64,000 bases of DNA, taken from NCBI RefSeq assembly GCF_900637635.1, contig NZ_LR134383.1, forward strand, positions 1,767,501-1,831,500, in the 5' to 3' direction. Both the position numbers and the translations under genes were made by a program. The stretch's first letter is position 1; each line of letters starts with the position of its first letter. The notes beneath the pieces are model-generated. The model was not told the origin of the DNA, did not search any database, and worked only from the letters and a program-made list of their open reading frames with translations. This document shows, one piece after another, positions 27,175-42,825 of the stretch. The DNA is from Legionella jordanis. GTDB taxonomy: Bacteria > Pseudomonadota > Gammaproteobacteria > Legionellales > Legionellaceae.

Positions 27175-27864
27175 ATGAATACAATTATAAGCATACTTTC
27201 AGCGGCTTTTTTATCGACTAGCGCTCATCATGCGCCAGCTCCTGCTAATACGACCTCAGCCAAAACTGGGTTTGATGTGAATCAGGAAGTTCAGCACCTT
27301 AGCCAAAAGGCGCCCCAGCTTAATAAAAAAGTTTTGAAGTTAGCGTTAACAGCTTATAAGAAAGCAGCAGACAAAGGTGCCGTCAAGAAACCCGTACTAA
27401 CGGTAATTGATTATTCTTTACCCTCTAACAAACAGCGTATGTGGGTTTTTGATGTGAGCAAAGAACGTCTTCTTTACAATACCTATGTAGCTCATGGCCG
27501 AAATTCAGGCGGTGATGTCCCCCGTCATTTTTCAAACAAGCCATCAAGTAAAGCAACAAGCCTTGGTACCTATATAACGCGAGATACCTATATGGGGTCA
27601 AAAGGATATTCCTTGAACTTACAAGGTTTGGAGCGCGGTTTTAACGATAACGCTTATAATCGCCGTGTGGTCATTCATGGTGCATGGTATGTAGAGCCTG
27701 ATTTCATCAGAAAGGCAGGACGAGCCGGCCGCAGCTGGGGTTGCCCATCCATTGCCAAAACACTCGCGAAACCAGTAATTAACACCATCAAAAATGGCTC
27801 GGTCGTTTTTGCGTATTATCCCGATAGCTACTACCTGTCGCATTCAGGCTACGCCACTGTATAA
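27175..27864 (+). CDS. Murein L,D-transpeptidase catalytic-domain protein (YkuD_2 type)
   Basis: A 229-residue secreted protein. It has a weak Sec signal (cleavage after about residue 17) and then an L,D-transpeptidase-like catalytic domain with H168 in VVIHGAWYV and the nucleophile C190 in GRSWGCPSI. Enzymes of this fold cross-link meso-diaminopimelate residues in peptidoglycan or attach proteins to it. This subfamily has the Ser-x-Gly-Cys-Pro-Ser motif. It acts in the periplasm. AAAGGAG precedes the ATG. The 3' end is shared with the terminator of an sRNA on the opposite strand. Specificity is unknown. Confidence 0.85.
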   Translation: MNTIISILSAAFLSTSAHHAPAPANTTSAKTGFDVNQEVQHLSQKAPQLNKKVLKLALTAYKKAADKGAVKKPVLTVIDYSLPSNKQRMWVFDVSKERLLYNTYVAHGRNSGGDVPRHFSNKPSSKATSLGTYITRDTYMGSKGYSLNLQGLERGFNDNAYNRRVVIHGAWYVEPDFIRKAGRAGRSWGCPSIAKTLAKPVINTIKNGSVVFAYYPDSYYLSHSGYATV

Positions 27865-27992
27865 AAAGAAAGCCAGGGCAAGCCCTGGCTTCGCAGTCAC
27901 CAATCGAGATATCCTATCTCGATTTCATCCCTGACTTTCACATCCTTATGATTGCAATTCCCTTTGTAAGACCTCAAATCCGTTGAAGTCAT
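27861..27992 (-). ncRNA. Probable CsrA-sequestering small RNA (RsmY/RsmZ type)
   Basis: On the minus strand a short transcript of about 132 bases is bounded by a promoter and a strong terminator and contains five A(N)GGA motifs. They are ACGGA (GGA at 27979-27981), AAGGGA (27959-27964), AAGGA (GGA at 27943-27945), AGGGA (27928-27931) and AGGA (27912-27915). The last sits as a loop on a perfect 9-bp stem (27903-27923). The terminator is a stem AGCCAGGG/CCCTGGCT (27871-27890) followed by TTCTTTTTAT. Repeated GGA, one of them in a hairpin loop, is the signature of RNAs that bind CsrA and free its mRNA targets. In L. pneumophila, RsmY and RsmZ do this under LetA control. No protein is encoded. 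Which of the two it is I cannot tell. Confidence 0.75.
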
Positions 27993-27998
27993 ACTTAG

Positions 27999-28027
27999 AA
28001 TGTAGCAATTTGCATTTAGCTCTGCAA
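27999..28027 (-). promoter_or_regulatory. Promoter of the Rsm-type sRNA
   Basis: On the minus strand TTGCAG (28022-28027) and TACATT (27999-28004) are separated by exactly 17 bases. The -10 is preceded by C, as in RpoS-responsive promoters. The predicted start at about 27992 gives a transcript of about 132 bases to the terminator. Confidence 0.55.
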
Positions 28028-28163
28028 CACTGTGCAATTTGCATACGAGGTGAAATTAATTTTCTACTTTTGCGTCATTTTAATAAATATGTAAAAAGAT
28101 CAATTACTTAGTAAAATGATTGCAAATAAGTGCAGTTATTGCATGCAAATTTCTCGCAAGAGA

Positions 28164-28178
28164 TTGAGAAATTTCTTG
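28164..28178. promoter_or_regulatory. LetA-like response-regulator box
   Basis: TTGAGAAATTTCTTG contains the palindrome AGAAATTTCT and fits the L. pneumophila LetA consensus TNAGAAATTTCTNA in all but one base on either strand. It lies about 180 bases upstream of the predicted sRNA start. Distant upstream GacA/UvrY/LetA-type sites are usual for csrB/rsm genes. Confidence 0.6.
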
Positions 28179-28262
28179 GGCATGCTTGAGCAAATTCCTT
28201 AGAATTCAAAACACTCTATTCTGGAGTAATTAATCAGTAGCTCTAACGGAAAACCCGAACCC

Positions 28263-28377: not shown

Positions 28378-28737
28378 ATGAATCAACAGAATGAAACAGC
28401 CAAAAAAGACAAACAGCAAATCATTGATTGGCTTATCGAGCACTTCCCCAATGCCTTTTTTAAAAAAGGTGGTCAGGTTAAACCGCTGCAAATTGGCATT
28501 TTTGATGAAATAATTGATTTTTATGAACGGTTAGATAGCCCCCCTTTTAGTAAAAAAGCTTTACGTGAGGCCCTCAGTTACTACAGCTCTTCACCGGCCT
28601 ACTTAAGTTGCCAAAAGCCAAATGCTGCGCGTGTGGATCTCTTTGGTAATGAAGTGGATGTCGTCACGGAAGATCAAGCGAAGTATGCCTATCAACGTTT
28701 TCAGCAAAGATACGGTGAGAAAAAAGCTCAAAACTAA
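28378..28737 (+). CDS. ProQ/FinO-domain RNA-binding protein
   Basis: A 119-residue protein consisting almost wholly of a ProQ/FinO domain: DWLIEHFPNAFFKKGGQVKP, then IGIFDEIIDFYERL, then SKKALREALSYYSSSPAYLSC and ARVDLFGNEVDVV. Such proteins bind 3' hairpins of sRNAs and mRNAs and act as RNA chaperones; Legionella RocC represses competence with the sRNA RocR. This one is a minimal form without the ProQ C-terminal domain. The ATG at 28378 is preferred because of family length. An ATG at 28303 would add 25 residues that form a hydrophobic helix, a form not known to me. It stands next to the Rsm-type sRNA gene, which may be chance. Confidence 0.85.
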   Translation: MNQQNETAKKDKQQIIDWLIEHFPNAFFKKGGQVKPLQIGIFDEIIDFYERLDSPPFSKKALREALSYYSSSPAYLSCQKPNAARVDLFGNEVDVVTEDQAKYAYQRFQQRYGEKKAQN

Positions 28738-29013: not shown

Positions 29014-29727
29014 TTAAATGCTGTTGACATCATCGGGTTTGCGGCAGCAAAGTAAATAGTTAACATCAACAGAGACCCGCAAGTCAGCGCTTCGGCTAAA
29101 GGGATTATAACTCATTCCTGAAACCTTAAGCATTTCCAATCCAGCTGCACGAGCCATTTGGGCCAACTCGCTAGGCTTCACAAACTTTTCAAAATCATGT
29201 GTCTGTCTGGGTAAAATGCCCAACAAGTATTCTGCCGCCAAAATGACAGAAGTGTAAGCTTTGAACGTGCGGTTAATCGTTGAAAGAAACAGATATCCTC
29301 CAGGTCTTAATAGCCTTGCGCAATGATTGATGATTACCTCAGGCTGCGGTACATGCTCAAGCATCTCCATACAAGTAATGACATCAAACTGAGCTTCATC
29401 GTAATCTTCAATAGCTGAACAAACGTAGTTGATTGTTAGATGTTTGCTTAAAGCATGTTCTCTGGCTGCTGACAAAGCCTCTTCGGATAAATCAAGCCCG
29501 GTAACTGTTGCATCCTGGCTGGCCATGGCCTCAGTCAAAATGCCTCCCCCACAGCCAACATCCAGCACCTGTTTGTTTGCCAAGGGGCAGGTTTTTAAAA
29601 TAAATGCAATTCTGGCTGGGTTAATGTCATGCAATGTTTTTAATGGGCCGTCTTTATCCCACCACACTTGAGCATACTGGGAAAATTTAGCGATTTCTTC
29701 GGAATCAACGTTTAATTTATGGTTCAT
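29014..29727 (-). CDS. ubiG: Ubiquinone biosynthesis O-methyltransferase
   Basis: A 237-residue SAM-dependent enzyme carrying out both O-methylations of the ubiquinone ring. The SAM motif I reads QVLDVGCGGGILTEAMA (about 53-69). The family region ITCMEMLEHVPQPEVI and LFLSTINRTFKAYTSVILAAEYLLGILPRQTHDFEKF (in part) are diagnostic for UbiG. The length matches E. coli UbiG (240). Its start overlaps the end of the upstream gene by 11 bases, so the two are translationally coupled. Cytosolic, probably working with the Ubi complex at the membrane. Confidence 0.95.
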   Translation of the reverse strand: MNHKLNVDSEEIAKFSQYAQVWWDKDGPLKTLHDINPARIAFILKTCPLANKQVLDVGCGGGILTEAMASQDATVTGLDLSEEALSAAREHALSKHLTINYVCSAIEDYDEAQFDVITCMEMLEHVPQPEVIINHCARLLRPGGYLFLSTINRTFKAYTSVILAAEYLLGILPRQTHDFEKFVKPSELAQMARAAGLEMLKVSGMSYNPFSRSADLRVSVDVNYLLCCRKPDDVNSI

Positions 29728-30442
29728 GACGATTTAGCAAATCCAAGGGTTTAAAGAAGGCCAATACTTGTGGATTATGAATAAAACTTAAATTGTAAGG
29801 ATGTTCGGCAATTAAGCAAGTAAAACCATTGGCCTGAGGTATGTCTTTGGCGATGCGACCAAAAAGAAGTAATTGCAAAGAGGGTTTGCACACAATCAAT
29901 TGATCAAACAAGCTATTCATAAAAGGCTTCCAGTGCCGCGCATGAAAATTTACCTTTCCCTTGCTGAACACAAGAGACGCATTCAGCAATAAAAATCCCT
30001 TTTTCATTAAAGATTGAAAGAATTCTTCGCTGGTTTGACAAAAAGTTGATTTATCAAGTTTAGCAATAGCGGCTTGTGACAAATCCCCTTGTAAATCACC
30101 GCGAGCAACCAATAAAGTTTTTATCCAGTTTCTTAATGAAGTAGCTCGATTCACTTCTTTGCTTAGGCCTGTTTCGCACCACAAGGAATTGACTGCTTTA
30201 TCCCAAAAAGCATAACCATTTGCAGAGTGGGAACGTGGGTAAGGCGACTCGCCAATTAAAATGTATTTGGTTTCACTTAAAGGCAAACTAAATGCTGCAA
30301 ACAGTTTATCAATTCCCGGCAGCCAACTTTTATCTTGCTCCAGTAACAAAAGATAGTCATTATCCACATTTTTTAAGGCATTGGTTAATATCGCATGCCA
30401 CTCAGGATGTGCGTTTTGAACAAGAGAATGCACCAAATTCAT
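29717..30442 (-). CDS. Uracil-DNA glycosylase homologue with altered catalytic motif
   Basis: A 241-residue protein with the overall pattern of family 1 uracil-DNA glycosylases. ILIGESPYPR (residues 61-70) takes the place of the GQDPYH water-activating loop. ANGYAFW matches the AxGLxFS strand, LLLNASLVF the uracil-recognition strand (LLLNTxLTV), and AEHPYNLSF the HPSPLS loop. The catalytic aspartate of GQDPYH is Ser66 here and the following His is Pro, while the other catalytic His and the Asn are kept. It may have lost base-excision activity or changed substrate. The ATG at 30442 is preferred to one 11 codons upstream. It overlaps ubiG by 11 bases. Confidence 0.7.
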   Translation of the reverse strand: MNLVHSLVQNAHPEWHAILTNALKNVDNDYLLLLEQDKSWLPGIDKLFAAFSLPLSETKYILIGESPYPRSHSANGYAFWDKAVNSLWCETGLSKEVNRATSLRNWIKTLLVARGDLQGDLSQAAIAKLDKSTFCQTSEEFFQSLMKKGFLLLNASLVFSKGKVNFHARHWKPFMNSLFDQLIVCKPSLQLLLFGRIAKDIPQANGFTCLIAEHPYNLSFIHNPQVLAFFKPLDLLNRHEP

Positions 30443-30560
30443 TATCCACTTAAACCTATGTTTTACTAAGAACAATTTGTATGTCCATTTGGCTTATATC
30501 ATAATTCGTTAAGGATAGAGTACTACAATTTTAGATATCCAATACAAGAGAGAAGTATAG

Positions 30561-32654
30561 ATGGCTAGCAGCACTGCAGAAATAATAAAAATGACAAGTG
30601 ATAGAGTTCACAATAAAAACTGTTATTCATATCTTAAGCAACTTGCATTAACTCCTTATGTGATGGACACCTTCTCAAAAGAGTTGAAAACCGCGCTCAG
30701 CGCAGTGATGAGCCAAAGTCAATACGATGAAAATTATCCCTATGCCGATTTGTATACCGCCTTCTTTAGCGAAGTAGAAAGTAAAATTGATAAAATTTAT
30801 GACCAACGCCGAAGGAATCTTGAACGAAACAAAGAATTAGTGATTTCTAACCAGCCACTTTCCGACAAAAACGATTTTGTCCGATTATATACTAGGAGTT
30901 TGGGCGATGTGGCTGACATTGAGCAGCAAATTCAGGAACTGGATGACTTTATATTTTCCATTTATGACAATGACAATAACATTTTACCGCAAACCTTTGC
31001 AGCGATAAAATCGATTCCTCTACGCCATGCCCCTGTTGATACCGAAATTGAATCGTCCATCACTAAATCTCTGCAAGATGAAGGCGAAAACGTAAACAAA
31101 CATGCTCAATCGCCTGCGCAGGCAGGTTCCTTATTTGGACGATTATCAGCCACTTTATCGGATGATTTCAAACCTCAACACACGACCAGTTTGGCAACTG
31201 TGCGTAAATATGAGTATCAGGACAATAGCCGCCGTGAATACCGTTTTGGCACTCAAGGCCAGCGTCATCATGGAGAAGAGCGTGTCAGCCCTCTATTTGA
31301 GAGATGGCTTGATGTCGCCTCACGTAGAGAAAACACGGATCGAATTGTTCACATCTATTTTAATAATTTAGGTTACGACAGAAGTGGCATCGAAGGTTCG
31401 AAGGAGCGTGCACTGTCCCTTAAACTGCACGAACTTGAGAAAACGAGAGATTTTCTAAACCCCGATCCGCCAAAAATAGCAGTGATTACCCTTCCTGCAG
31501 ATCAGGGGTATATGAAAAGCCGGGAATATTCAAAAACTCGCGACAGTCACAAATGCAAAGAAGTATTCGAAGAATTTTTCAATATTGCCAATCAGAACTC
31601 GAAAGCCGTCTCTGAAGTGAAGGATTTCTACATCAGCTCAAACATCAGGGCCCGTCTTTTTAAAGATAAAGATTTATACAGTGCTGATGTGGAAAGGGAA
31701 ACACTTCAGAAATTATTGACCAAAAGTTTTCAGGACTTAGGATTTGATCCTGAAAAAGACAGGATGAGTAGCGCGCAAAGGCAAGCCGTCTGGTTTCATT
31801 TTATTAAATTTGCACTAACCAATTTCATCATTGAAGAACTAAACCCTAGAAGTTACAACTTTTCATGTAAGGATGCGATTGACCGAGGTGGTGTTTCTTC
31901 GGCTTATTATAATTTAATGAAATCTTTTACCACTGCCAATCCTATGACTCGCGAAGAATTCGAATGTGCATTACATGCTGCCCCCGCGATGGTTAAAGCA
32001 CGCGGCATGAATCACCATCTAAGACTCATTTGGAACGCTGTTGATAGTTATGTAAACAATAATTATGAAGCGCTTCGCGACAATCCACAAAAAGCCTGGT
32101 TGATTGCCTGGCGAGACTTAAATTGCCCACACTCTCGAGTAAAGGAATTGCTGGACTTAAGAATTAAACAAAGCCTAGAAGAATTGGAAAAGGCCAATAA
32201 AGCGAATCCTAAAGATCCTAAAATCGTTAAAAGTTTGAAGATTTTGCAGGAAATAGAGACCCACAAAAATCTTGGGGTCAGCGGCAAACGGCTTTTACTT
32301 GAGGCAACTGTACGCACTCGCGATCTCGCTTTGACAGAAAAACCCAGTCATGAGCAAATAGAAGCTTATGAGAAATTGGCAAACCGCATCAATATTCGTT
32401 CTCCAAATTTACATATTGTAGCCGGCTTAATGAAAATGCTGGTTGGCATTGTGGCTTATGGTCTGTCTTTTGGCCATGCACAATCCATGTTGCATTCAGG
32501 TATTGCGACATTTAAAACCGGAGTACATGGAAGAGAGGGAATTGTCCAAGACATCAAAGCACAATTGGTGCAGTTAAAACAAGCCAATAATCCTCAAGAG
32601 AATCTTAATGATGAAGAAGGGGAACGCGACGACGAAGGTATCCGGGTAAACTGA
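30561..32654 (+). CDS. Large CX5R phosphatase-like protein, candidate Dot/Icm effector
   Basis: A 697-residue hydrophilic protein without signal peptide. Its centre contains SCKDAIDRGGVSSAYYNL (about 435-452). C436 and R442 make a CX5R loop like that of cysteine-dependent phosphatases, including the Legionella phosphoinositide phosphatases SidF and SidP, whose loops read CKSxKDR. It is preceded by ITLPADQGYMKSREYSKTRD (309-328) and followed by MVKARGMNHHLRLIWNAVDSY (478-498), probably fold elements. The N-terminal 250 residues are helical and unassigned. The C-terminus is acidic (EGERDDEGI), in keeping with the E-block of translocated Dot/Icm substrates. AAGAGAGAAG lies before the ATG. It stands alone between a divergent and a co-directional gene. 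Activity is inferred from the motif only. Confidence 0.6.
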   Translation: MASSTAEIIKMTSDRVHNKNCYSYLKQLALTPYVMDTFSKELKTALSAVMSQSQYDENYPYADLYTAFFSEVESKIDKIYDQRRRNLERNKELVISNQPLSDKNDFVRLYTRSLGDVADIEQQIQELDDFIFSIYDNDNNILPQTFAAIKSIPLRHAPVDTEIESSITKSLQDEGENVNKHAQSPAQAGSLFGRLSATLSDDFKPQHTTSLATVRKYEYQDNSRREYRFGTQGQRHHGEERVSPLFERWLDVASRRENTDRIVHIYFNNLGYDRSGIEGSKERALSLKLHELEKTRDFLNPDPPKIAVITLPADQGYMKSREYSKTRDSHKCKEVFEEFFNIANQNSKAVSEVKDFYISSNIRARLFKDKDLYSADVERETLQKLLTKSFQDLGFDPEKDRMSSAQRQAVWFHFIKFALTNFIIEELNPRSYNFSCKDAIDRGGVSSAYYNLMKSFTTANPMTREEFECALHAAPAMVKARGMNHHLRLIWNAVDSYVNNNYEALRDNPQKAWLIAWRDLNCPHSRVKELLDLRIKQSLEELEKANKANPKDPKIVKSLKILQEIETHKNLGVSGKRLLLEATVRTRDLALTEKPSHEQIEAYEKLANRINIRSPNLHIVAGLMKMLVGIVAYGLSFGHAQSMLHSGIATFKTGVHGREGIVQDIKAQLVQLKQANNPQENLNDEEGERDDEGIRVN

Positions 32655-42697: not shown

Positions 42698-42729
42698 ATA
42701 AATCTCCAGGGTTAAGCCTCCACGCTTCC

Positions 42730-42763
42730 CATGCGGTACTCATTAATGAGACCCCACCGCATG
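42730..42763 (-). promoter_or_regulatory. Structured rpsB leader (candidate S2 autoregulatory element)
   Basis: Within the 5' leader of rpsB an 8-bp stem (CATGCGGT and ACCGCATG) encloses a G-rich internal loop and a second palindromic hairpin, CTCATTAATGAG (42739-42750). The rpsB leader of other gammaproteobacteria is known to bind S2 and repress rpsB-tsf. This element is at the same place and of similar size. Homology itself is inferred. Confidence 0.55.
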
Positions 42764-42796
42764 TGACGAAACGTGTGTGTCGTTAAAAGCGCCGTA

Positions 42797-42825
42797 TTTA
42801 TACCATAATGAGGCAAATTCGGCAA
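42797..42825 (-). promoter_or_regulatory. rpsB operon promoter
   Basis: On the minus strand TTGCCG (42820-42825) and TATAAA (42797-42802) are spaced by 17 bases, with TG one base before the -10 (extended -10). The start near 42790 gives a leader of about 93 bases. GC-rich bases around the start are in keeping with growth-rate control. Confidence 0.65.

What the first reader, a model, noticed from the sequence alone, without database searches (positions are those of the whole stretch)
27861..28178. Rsm-type sRNA with LetA-like box on the strand opposite the L,D-transpeptidase end
Promoter, five A(N)GGA motifs (one as a hairpin loop), a perfect terminator and an upstream AGAAATTTCT palindrome are laid out as in L. 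pneumophila RsmY/RsmZ. The RNA would sequester CsrA and link this locus to the LetA/S switch from replicative to transmissive phase. It is invisible to protein-based annotation. Its terminator lies tail to tail with the L,D-transpeptidase gene, so each may end the other's transcription.
Basis: partly seen in the sequence, partly recalled or inferred. Interest (0 to 1): 0.75.

Follow-up and report, generated by a model that had tools for sequence, protein, structure and literature searches.

The report
RsmZ regulatory RNA of a Legionella
This is the gene for RsmZ, a small regulatory RNA already known from Legionella pneumophila that is thought to soak up the protein CsrA when the bacterium switches from growth to spread; it is real and conserved, but of a known kind.

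Summary
A ~131-nt RNA gene lies on the minus strand (about 27992 to 27861), tail to tail with an L,D-transpeptidase gene. It has a promoter, five A(N)GGA motifs, a strong terminator and a LetA-like palindrome 179 bp upstream. The same RNA follows the related transpeptidase gene in 51 of 68 sequences examined. It folds into five GGA-loop hairpins plus a terminator; 28 of 39 pairs show two-sided changes. The palindrome sits at one of two distances about one helical turn apart, usually with an IHF-like site ~67 bp from it. A paper places rsmZ directly adjacent to lpg1697, the L. pneumophila YkuD_2 gene. So this is the RsmZ orthologue: a CsrA-sequestering RNA under LetA-type control. A probable RsmY lies elsewhere in the genome. 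Less familiar: the family-wide structure model (no Rfam match), the LetA-IHF spacing, and a frequent divergent neighbour, a minimal ProQ protein like Lpp1663, of unknown function. The claim of mutual termination is weak. Expression and CsrA binding were not testable here.

The parts
27861..27992 (-). RsmZ-type small RNA, about 131 nt (start inferred from the -10 element; 3' end inferred from the U-tract)
   Evidence: covariance model R1, built without the window, matches 27992-27869 at 78.6 bits, E 9.9e-22; nhmmer
27970..27990 (-). hairpin 1, GGA in loop (27981-27979)
   Evidence: family structure; GGA in this loop in 51 of 51
27955..27966 (-). hairpin 2 (short), GGA in loop (27961-27959)
   Evidence: family structure; GGA in 50 of 51 (51 if the innermost pair is counted); weakest helix, 83% of cells paired
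27938..27951 (-). hairpin 3, GGA in loop (27945-27943)
   Evidence: family structure; GGA in 51 of 51
27925..27934 (-). hairpin 4 (short), GGA in loop (27930-27928)
   Evidence: family structure; GGA in 50 of 51
27903..27923 (-). hairpin 5, GGA in loop (27914-27912)
   Evidence: family structure; GGA in 35 of 51
27869..27892 (-). intrinsic terminator stem-loop; the following U-tract (27867-27863) overlaps the transpeptidase stop codon on the other strand
27999..28027 (-). promoter: TTGCAG (28027-28022), 17-nt spacer, TACATT (28004-27999) preceded by TGC
   Evidence: sequence; same arrangement in 50 of 51 loci, spacing 17 in 48 and 16 in 2
28098..28110 (+). IHF-like site GATCAATTACTTA, centre 112 bp upstream of the RNA start
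   Evidence: 1 mismatch to WATCARNNNNTTR (recalled consensus); 63-71 bp from the LetA box in 39 of 51 loci, shuffles 1.4
28165..28178 (.). LetA-like box CAAGAAATTTCTCA, centre 179 bp upstream of the RNA start
   Evidence: 1 mismatch to TNAGAAATTTCTNA (recalled consensus); position conserved
27175..27864 (+). L,D-transpeptidase (YkuD_2), counterpart of lpg1697, convergent neighbour
   Evidence: Pfam PF13645, 233.7 bits; same family named for lpg1697 in PMC10117105
28378..28737 (+). minimal ProQ/FinO protein, Lpp1663-like, divergent neighbour (ORF open from 28303; conservation mostly starts near M26 = 28378)
   Evidence: PF04352, 101.8 bits; PDB 6s10 E 5.6e-63; same side and orientation in 43 of 51 loci

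Best explanation
The locus encodes the Legionella RsmZ orthologue. LetA-phosphate binds the palindrome at -179, IHF bends the DNA at about -112 so that LetA reaches RNA polymerase, and an extended -10 promoter (possibly read by RpoS) makes a ~131-nt RNA ending at a Rho-independent terminator. Its five hairpins present GGA loops that bind and titrate CsrA, releasing CsrA-repressed transmissive-phase messages. Shown here: the gene anatomy, its conservation, the covarying structure, the conserved spacing of the sites, and the linkage to the lpg1697 counterpart. Inferred from L. pneumophila and from general Csr/Rsm biology: transcription, LetA, IHF and RpoS control, CsrA binding and the phenotype.
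For: Same RNA beside the transpeptidase in 51 of 68 sequences and in 100 of 140 Legionellaceae genomes searched with the RNA model alone. Model R1, built from 18 other loci, finds the window at E 9.9e-22. Covariation: 28 of 39 pairs with two-sided changes, 0 of 500 shuffles as high, slid controls far lower. GGA strictly within loops 1-5 in 51, 50, 51, 50 and 35 of 51. LetA box at -167 to -181 in 48 of 51; LetA-IHF spacing. E. coli csrB has its UvrY palindrome centred at -183/-182 (PMC4682653 passage). IHF cooperates with LetA on rsmY/rsmZ in L. pneumophila (PMC4273665 passages). rsmZ adjoins lpg1697.
Against: No transcript or CsrA-binding data for this species. The L. pneumophila RsmZ sequence itself was not seen; identity rests on the stated adjacency and on related loci. 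No Csr/Rsm Rfam family matches. The window RNA folded alone does not show hairpins 2-4. Seven loci with 3.4 kb or more held past the transpeptidase (L010, L024, L027, L034, L041, L053, L068) lack the RNA, L043 lacks it within the 357 nt held, and 40 of 140 genomes gave no hit (strict filters). One RNA (L115) has no transpeptidase match in the 279 nt held beyond it. Two loci with the RNA (L021, L029) have no recognisable LetA box, and 12 of 51 lack the IHF-like site at the set spacing.
Confidence: 0.94

Rival explanations
1. The RNA mainly acts in cis on the transpeptidase: the two transcripts converge, so read-through of the transpeptidase message would be antisense to the whole RNA, and each could destabilise or terminate the other.
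For: Tail-to-tail arrangement with the U-tract overlapping the transpeptidase stop codon; the transpeptidase strand has no good T-run after the shared hairpin (2 here, 0-5 in 51 loci), so read-through is plausible.
Against: Five GGA loops and the covarying structure are not needed for antisense action; deleting lpg1697 leaves rsmZ unchanged in L. pneumophila; some copies are separated from the transpeptidase by 126 to 292 nt (L004, L019, L023, L065, L066; coordinates).
Confidence: 0.05
2. It is a third, distinct Rsm paralogue (RsmX-like) and not RsmZ.
For: L. pneumophila has three (RsmX, Y, Z; PMC5338858 passages), and no L. pneumophila RNA sequence was compared.
Against: Published adjacency of rsmZ to lpg1697, one place per genome in all 100 genomes with a hit (one genome lists a second, weak hit on the other strand of the same place), and a different RNA at C1:8815-8980 that fits RsmY.
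Confidence: 0.03
3. Chance collection of GGA motifs and an AT-rich palindrome, not transcribed.
For: Taken singly in this window each element is near chance level.
Against: Conservation across 51 loci, with shuffled controls for the LetA box, the spacing and the covariation.
Confidence: 0.01

Closest known systems
RsmZ of Legionella pneumophila
   Same: Adjacent to the related YkuD_2 gene (lpg1697; PMC10117105 passages); CsrA-sequestering class; LetA, RpoS and IHF control reported there (passages).
   Different: Different species; L. pneumophila sequence not compared here. The window copy lacks the sixth GGA, between hairpin 5 and the terminator, that 45 of 51 copies have.
E. coli/Salmonella CsrB and CsrC
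   Same: Decoy for CsrA; UvrY (LetA-type) palindrome centred near -182 for csrB; IHF required for optimal UvrY binding (PMC4682653 passages and section title).
   Different: CsrB is much longer with many more GGA sites (recalled); no match to Rfam Csr/Rsm families.
Pseudomonas RsmY/RsmZ
   Same: GacA-controlled decoy RNA; IHF binds the rsmZ promoter of P. fluorescens (PMC4682653 passage).
   Different: No Rfam Rsm family is among the hits with E up to 10.
Second Rsm-like RNA of the same genome (C1:8815-8980), probable RsmY
   Same: LetA box, several GGA motifs, terminator-like hairpin; DNA match in 22 of 22 genomes of the genus.
   Different: LetA box only about 65 bp upstream of the likely start (counted by hand); last GGA lies in the final hairpin's loop.

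Membership tests
Legionella RsmZ (orthologue) | Adjacent to the lpg1697-type YkuD_2 gene | tested here: met
   Window arrangement; 51 of 68; paper passages. The 67 loci were chosen by that gene; of 30 loci found with the RNA model alone 29 have it, 9 of the 10 that do not repeat.
Legionella RsmZ (orthologue) | Sequence and structure relationship with the copies in other Legionella | tested here: met
   Model R1, E 9.9e-22; covariation
Legionella RsmZ (orthologue) | Direct alignment with the L. pneumophila RsmZ sequence | not tested
   No locus named L. pneumophila came up; L. norrlandica (L030), a close relative (recalled), carries the RNA
Csr/Rsm decoy RNAs (functional class) | Several A(N)GGA motifs in hairpin loops | tested here: met
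   Five in the window; per-loop counts 51, 50, 51, 50, 35 of 51
Csr/Rsm decoy RNAs (functional class) | Intrinsic terminator and own promoter | tested here: met
   (sequence level only)
Csr/Rsm decoy RNAs (functional class) | GacA/UvrY/LetA-type palindrome far upstream | tested here: met
   Centre -179; 48 of 51 loci at -167 to -181, three of these with 3 mismatches
Csr/Rsm decoy RNAs (functional class) | Binds and titrates CsrA | not testable with these tools
   csrA homologues present, five places over cut-off, one partial
Csr/Rsm decoy RNAs (functional class) | Transcription dependent on the LetA/GacA regulator | not testable with these tools
   LetA-type regulator encoded, 281.3 bits against cut-off 280; RpoS encoded. 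LetS was not searched.
Rfam Csr/Rsm families | Match above the gathering score | tested here: not met
   No such family at gathering or among the five hits with E up to 10

The most novel reading that the evidence does not exclude
rsmZ and the divergent Lpp1663-type minimal ProQ gene form one functional unit: the ProQ protein, reported to prefer 3' poly(U) tails, binds the RsmZ terminator and tunes its stability or its delivery to CsrA, joining the CsrA and ProQ networks at one locus and giving Lpp1663, whose function is unknown, a job. For: divergent neighbour in 43 of 51 loci; function unknown and poly(U) preference (PMC9977716 passages). Against: no ProQ match in 8 of 51 loci; in 6 of 43 the two are over 1 kb apart, whereas the LetA-rsmZ distance stays within two narrow classes; two loci (L024, L068) keep transpeptidase and ProQ side by side without the RNA.
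Probability: 0.12. Interest if true: 0.6.

Novelty: new member of a known kind. Interest (0 to 1): 0.33.

Why it matters
RsmZ is one arm of the switch that turns replicating Legionella into transmissible cells, and it escapes protein annotation and, here, Rfam. The structure model built here finds it in 100 of 140 Legionellaceae genomes examined, so the switch can be traced through the family. The LetA-IHF spacing, with steps of about one DNA turn between IHF and the promoter, is a specific prediction of how LetA activates from a distance. The frequent ProQ neighbour makes an open question, what Lpp1663 does, testable.

Tried and rejected
Rfam at gathering and at E up to 10: no Csr/Rsm family; the five hits in the stretch (mir-153, rli22 and others) are far under their gathering scores. 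Generic promoter scan: did not list the promoter. RNAalifold on the 46-row MAFFT alignment A1 (46 of the 51 rows; near-duplicates and one long copy left out) found only hairpins 3, 5 and the terminator, probably because MAFFT misaligns hairpin 1 between clades. The structure was therefore named by hand on an 18-row subset with the clearest hairpins (A2) and carried to 51 rows with the model (A4). A4 is fitted to that structure, so its counts lean towards it; A2 was aligned by MAFFT without it and also beats every shuffle (7 pairs with two-sided change, 0 of 500), but the structure was read off one of its rows. A3 (68 rows) held 17 hits on the opposite strand, where the terminator palindrome matches, and was dropped for that reason. 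The IHF distance window of 63-71 bp was set, so its control is somewhat generous. No tree was built. A shared LetA switch for rsmZ and the divergent ProQ gene was considered and judged unlikely, because the distance to ProQ is not conserved. Fifteen of the 40 LetA-like places of the genome were scanned with the model for further Rsm RNAs; only L086 gave a (weak) hit, so RsmX was not sought thoroughly. A search of viral contigs for the ProQ protein found no relative. The order-level search printed only genomes of the same family, so it adds no outgroup. A text search for the LetA palindrome gave nothing relevant, so that consensus is recalled. Listings on rsmZ with ProQ or IHF showed no title about the neighbourhood or the spacing; the lists were capped and this is no proof that none is in print.

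Full report
What is there. The window lies in a 3.13-Mb genome of Legionella type (G000; relatives). On the minus strand, between a YkuD_2 L,D-transpeptidase gene (27175-27864, +) and a ProQ/FinO gene (conserved from about 28378, +), sits a non-coding gene. Its -35/-10 is TTGCAG-17-TACATT (28027-27999), the first base is most likely 27992, and a ten-pair terminator (27892-27869) followed by a U-tract ends it near 27861. The U-tract overlaps the stop codon of the transpeptidase on the other strand. Five A(N)GGA motifs lie in between, and the palindrome AGAAATTTCT lies at 28167-28176.

Is it more than chance? In this window alone, not clearly: the promoter scan does not list the promoter; LetA-like boxes with at most one mismatch are found twice in the window where 0.5 are expected, and 7 of 100 shuffles do as well; the genome has 40 such places against 29 for the reversed pattern; 2.4% of 132-nt stretches hold five or more GGA. 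The comparison with relatives decides it.

Relatives. A search with the transpeptidase gave 67 loci. Iterated nhmmer finds the RNA downstream of the transpeptidase in 51 of 68 sequences, window included. Of the 17 without it, two end at the gene (L016, L058) and one holds only 357 nt beyond it (L043). Seven are copies of 55-72% identity (L059-L064, L067); six of these come from three species that carry the RNA at another copy (L045, L046, L054). Seven hold 3.4 kb or more downstream but no RNA (L010, L024, L027, L034, L041, L053, L068). A covariance model from 18 loci, without the window, finds the same 51 and the window at E 9.9e-22. In whole genomes it hits 100 of 140 Legionellaceae, one place each; one genome lists a second, weak hit on the other strand of the same place. 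Of the 30 loci returned from these hits, 29 have the transpeptidase adjacent and 25 the ProQ gene within the stretch held; the exception, L115, shows no transpeptidase match in the 279 nt held beyond the RNA.

Structure. The model has five hairpins and the terminator. On the 51-row alignment (50 distinct) 95.4% of cells pair, 28 of 39 pairs show two-sided changes, no shuffle of 500 reaches any of the five measures, and slid versions pair in at most 45.2% of cells. That alignment was fitted to the structure; the 18-row MAFFT alignment also exceeds all shuffles, though the structure was read off one of its rows. GGA lies strictly within loops 1 to 5 in 51, 50, 51, 50 and 35 of 51 and in the linker before the terminator in 45; the window has all five loops but not the linker site. 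Against this, the window RNA folded alone shows only hairpins 1, 5 and the terminator clearly, though it folds better than all 200 shuffles, z -3.5.

Control region. An extended -10 (TGCTA[ACG]A[TG]T) with TTG[CA] 16-17 nt upstream is present in 50 of 51 loci (no shuffled control); its form resembles RpoS promoters (recalled). A LetA-like box is found with 0 mismatches in 10, 1 in 25, 2 in 10, 3 in 4 and none better than 4 in 2 of 51 loci; shuffles average 0.02, 0.44, 4.66, 24.5 and 21. Its centre falls in two classes: -178 to -181 (27 loci, window at -179) and -167 to -170 (21 loci, three of them with 3 mismatches); L018 (3 mismatches) lies at -157, and L021 and L029 have none. An IHF-like site lies 63-71 bp from the box in 39 of 51 loci, 38 of them at 66-68 bp; shuffles average 1.4, at most 8 (the distance window was set). 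So where both sites are found the LetA-IHF distance is constant while the distance to the promoter changes by about one turn of DNA. The change seems to have occurred more than once: the window differs from its nearest relatives by protein identity, and L031 from the loci that resemble it; no tree was built. E. coli csrB has its UvrY palindrome centred at -183/-182 (PMC4682653, passages). IHF acts with LetA on rsmY/rsmZ in L. pneumophila (PMC4273665, passages).

Identity. [quoted passage not shown] pneumophila, and that its deletion leaves rsmZ unchanged. PMC2824747 (passages) states that RsmY and RsmZ are conserved in L. longbeachae, whose locus (L046) carries this RNA. The window RNA is therefore filed as the RsmZ orthologue. 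The same genome has a second Rsm-like RNA at C1:8815-8980, with a perfect LetA box and seven GGA in the stretch; DNA matches occur in 22 of 22 genomes of the genus, with a LetA box of 0-2 mismatches in each and 4-8 GGA: probably RsmY. PMC8828724 (passages) labels L. pneumophila RsmY lppnc0001, which would fit a place near the start of the chromosome numbering; that is inference. csrA homologues (five places, one partial), a LetA-type regulator (just over its cut-off) and RpoS are encoded; LetS was not searched.

How it works. Inferred from L. pneumophila work (PMC5338858, passages): LetA and RpoS switch the RNA on at the end of growth, its GGA loops take CsrA off its target messages, and transmissive traits are expressed. 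I saw nothing in the sequence against this; transcription and CsrA binding were not testable.

Neighbours. Mutual termination is doubtful: on the transpeptidase strand the hairpin is followed by two T here and 0-5 in 51 loci, and the scan lists it only for the RNA strand. The divergent ProQ protein matches PDB 6s10 (E 5.6e-63), which I take from recall to be Lpp1663. It is present in 43 of 51 loci on the same side and strand, 6 of these more than 1 kb from the RNA. PMC9977716 (passages) gives Lpp1663's function as unknown and notes its preference for 3' poly(U). Whether it handles RsmZ is open.

Novelty. The kind is known and the member is an orthologue. The family-wide covariance model, the LetA-IHF spacing and the ProQ neighbourhood did not appear in what I saw: the capped listings and passages of the papers cited. 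Subscription papers on L. pneumophila RsmY/RsmZ were not held and may describe parts of this.

Noticed in passing
window 28378-28737 (+): Minimal ProQ/FinO protein (Lpp1663-like), divergent from rsmZ, in 43 of 51 loci.
   Followed up: yes
G000 C1:8815-8980 (-), locus L086/L141: Second Rsm-like RNA, probable RsmY, with a perfect LetA box about 65 bp upstream of the likely start and a GGA in the loop of the final hairpin.
   Followed up: partly
L024:4009-4137 and L068:187-307: Transpeptidase and ProQ genes adjacent with no RNA gene between them (only about 120 bp): either loss of rsmZ or a state before it arose.
   Followed up: partly
L115 (G079:C207): A strong copy of the RNA (140.7 bits) beside a ProQ gene but with no transpeptidase match in the 279 nt held on the other side.
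   Followed up: partly
window 28179-28195 and the same place in other loci: Beyond the LetA box, away from rsmZ, a short AGCAA/AAGACA-like element recurs at near-constant spacing, perhaps a second half-site (seen by eye, not counted).
   Followed up: no
G000, loci L069-L073: Five places match the CsrA family over the Pfam cut-off, one partially; the RNA may titrate more than one of them.
   Followed up: no
window 42711-42797 (-): t44 RNA, the only Rfam match over gathering in the window (71.5 bits).
   Followed up: no
window 30561-32654 (+) and 29717-30475 (-): Proteins of 697 and 252 aa without a Pfam match at E 0.001.
   Followed up: no
L162 (G019): RsmY-like locus with only 4 GGA and a different 3' hairpin from its relatives.
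   Followed up: no
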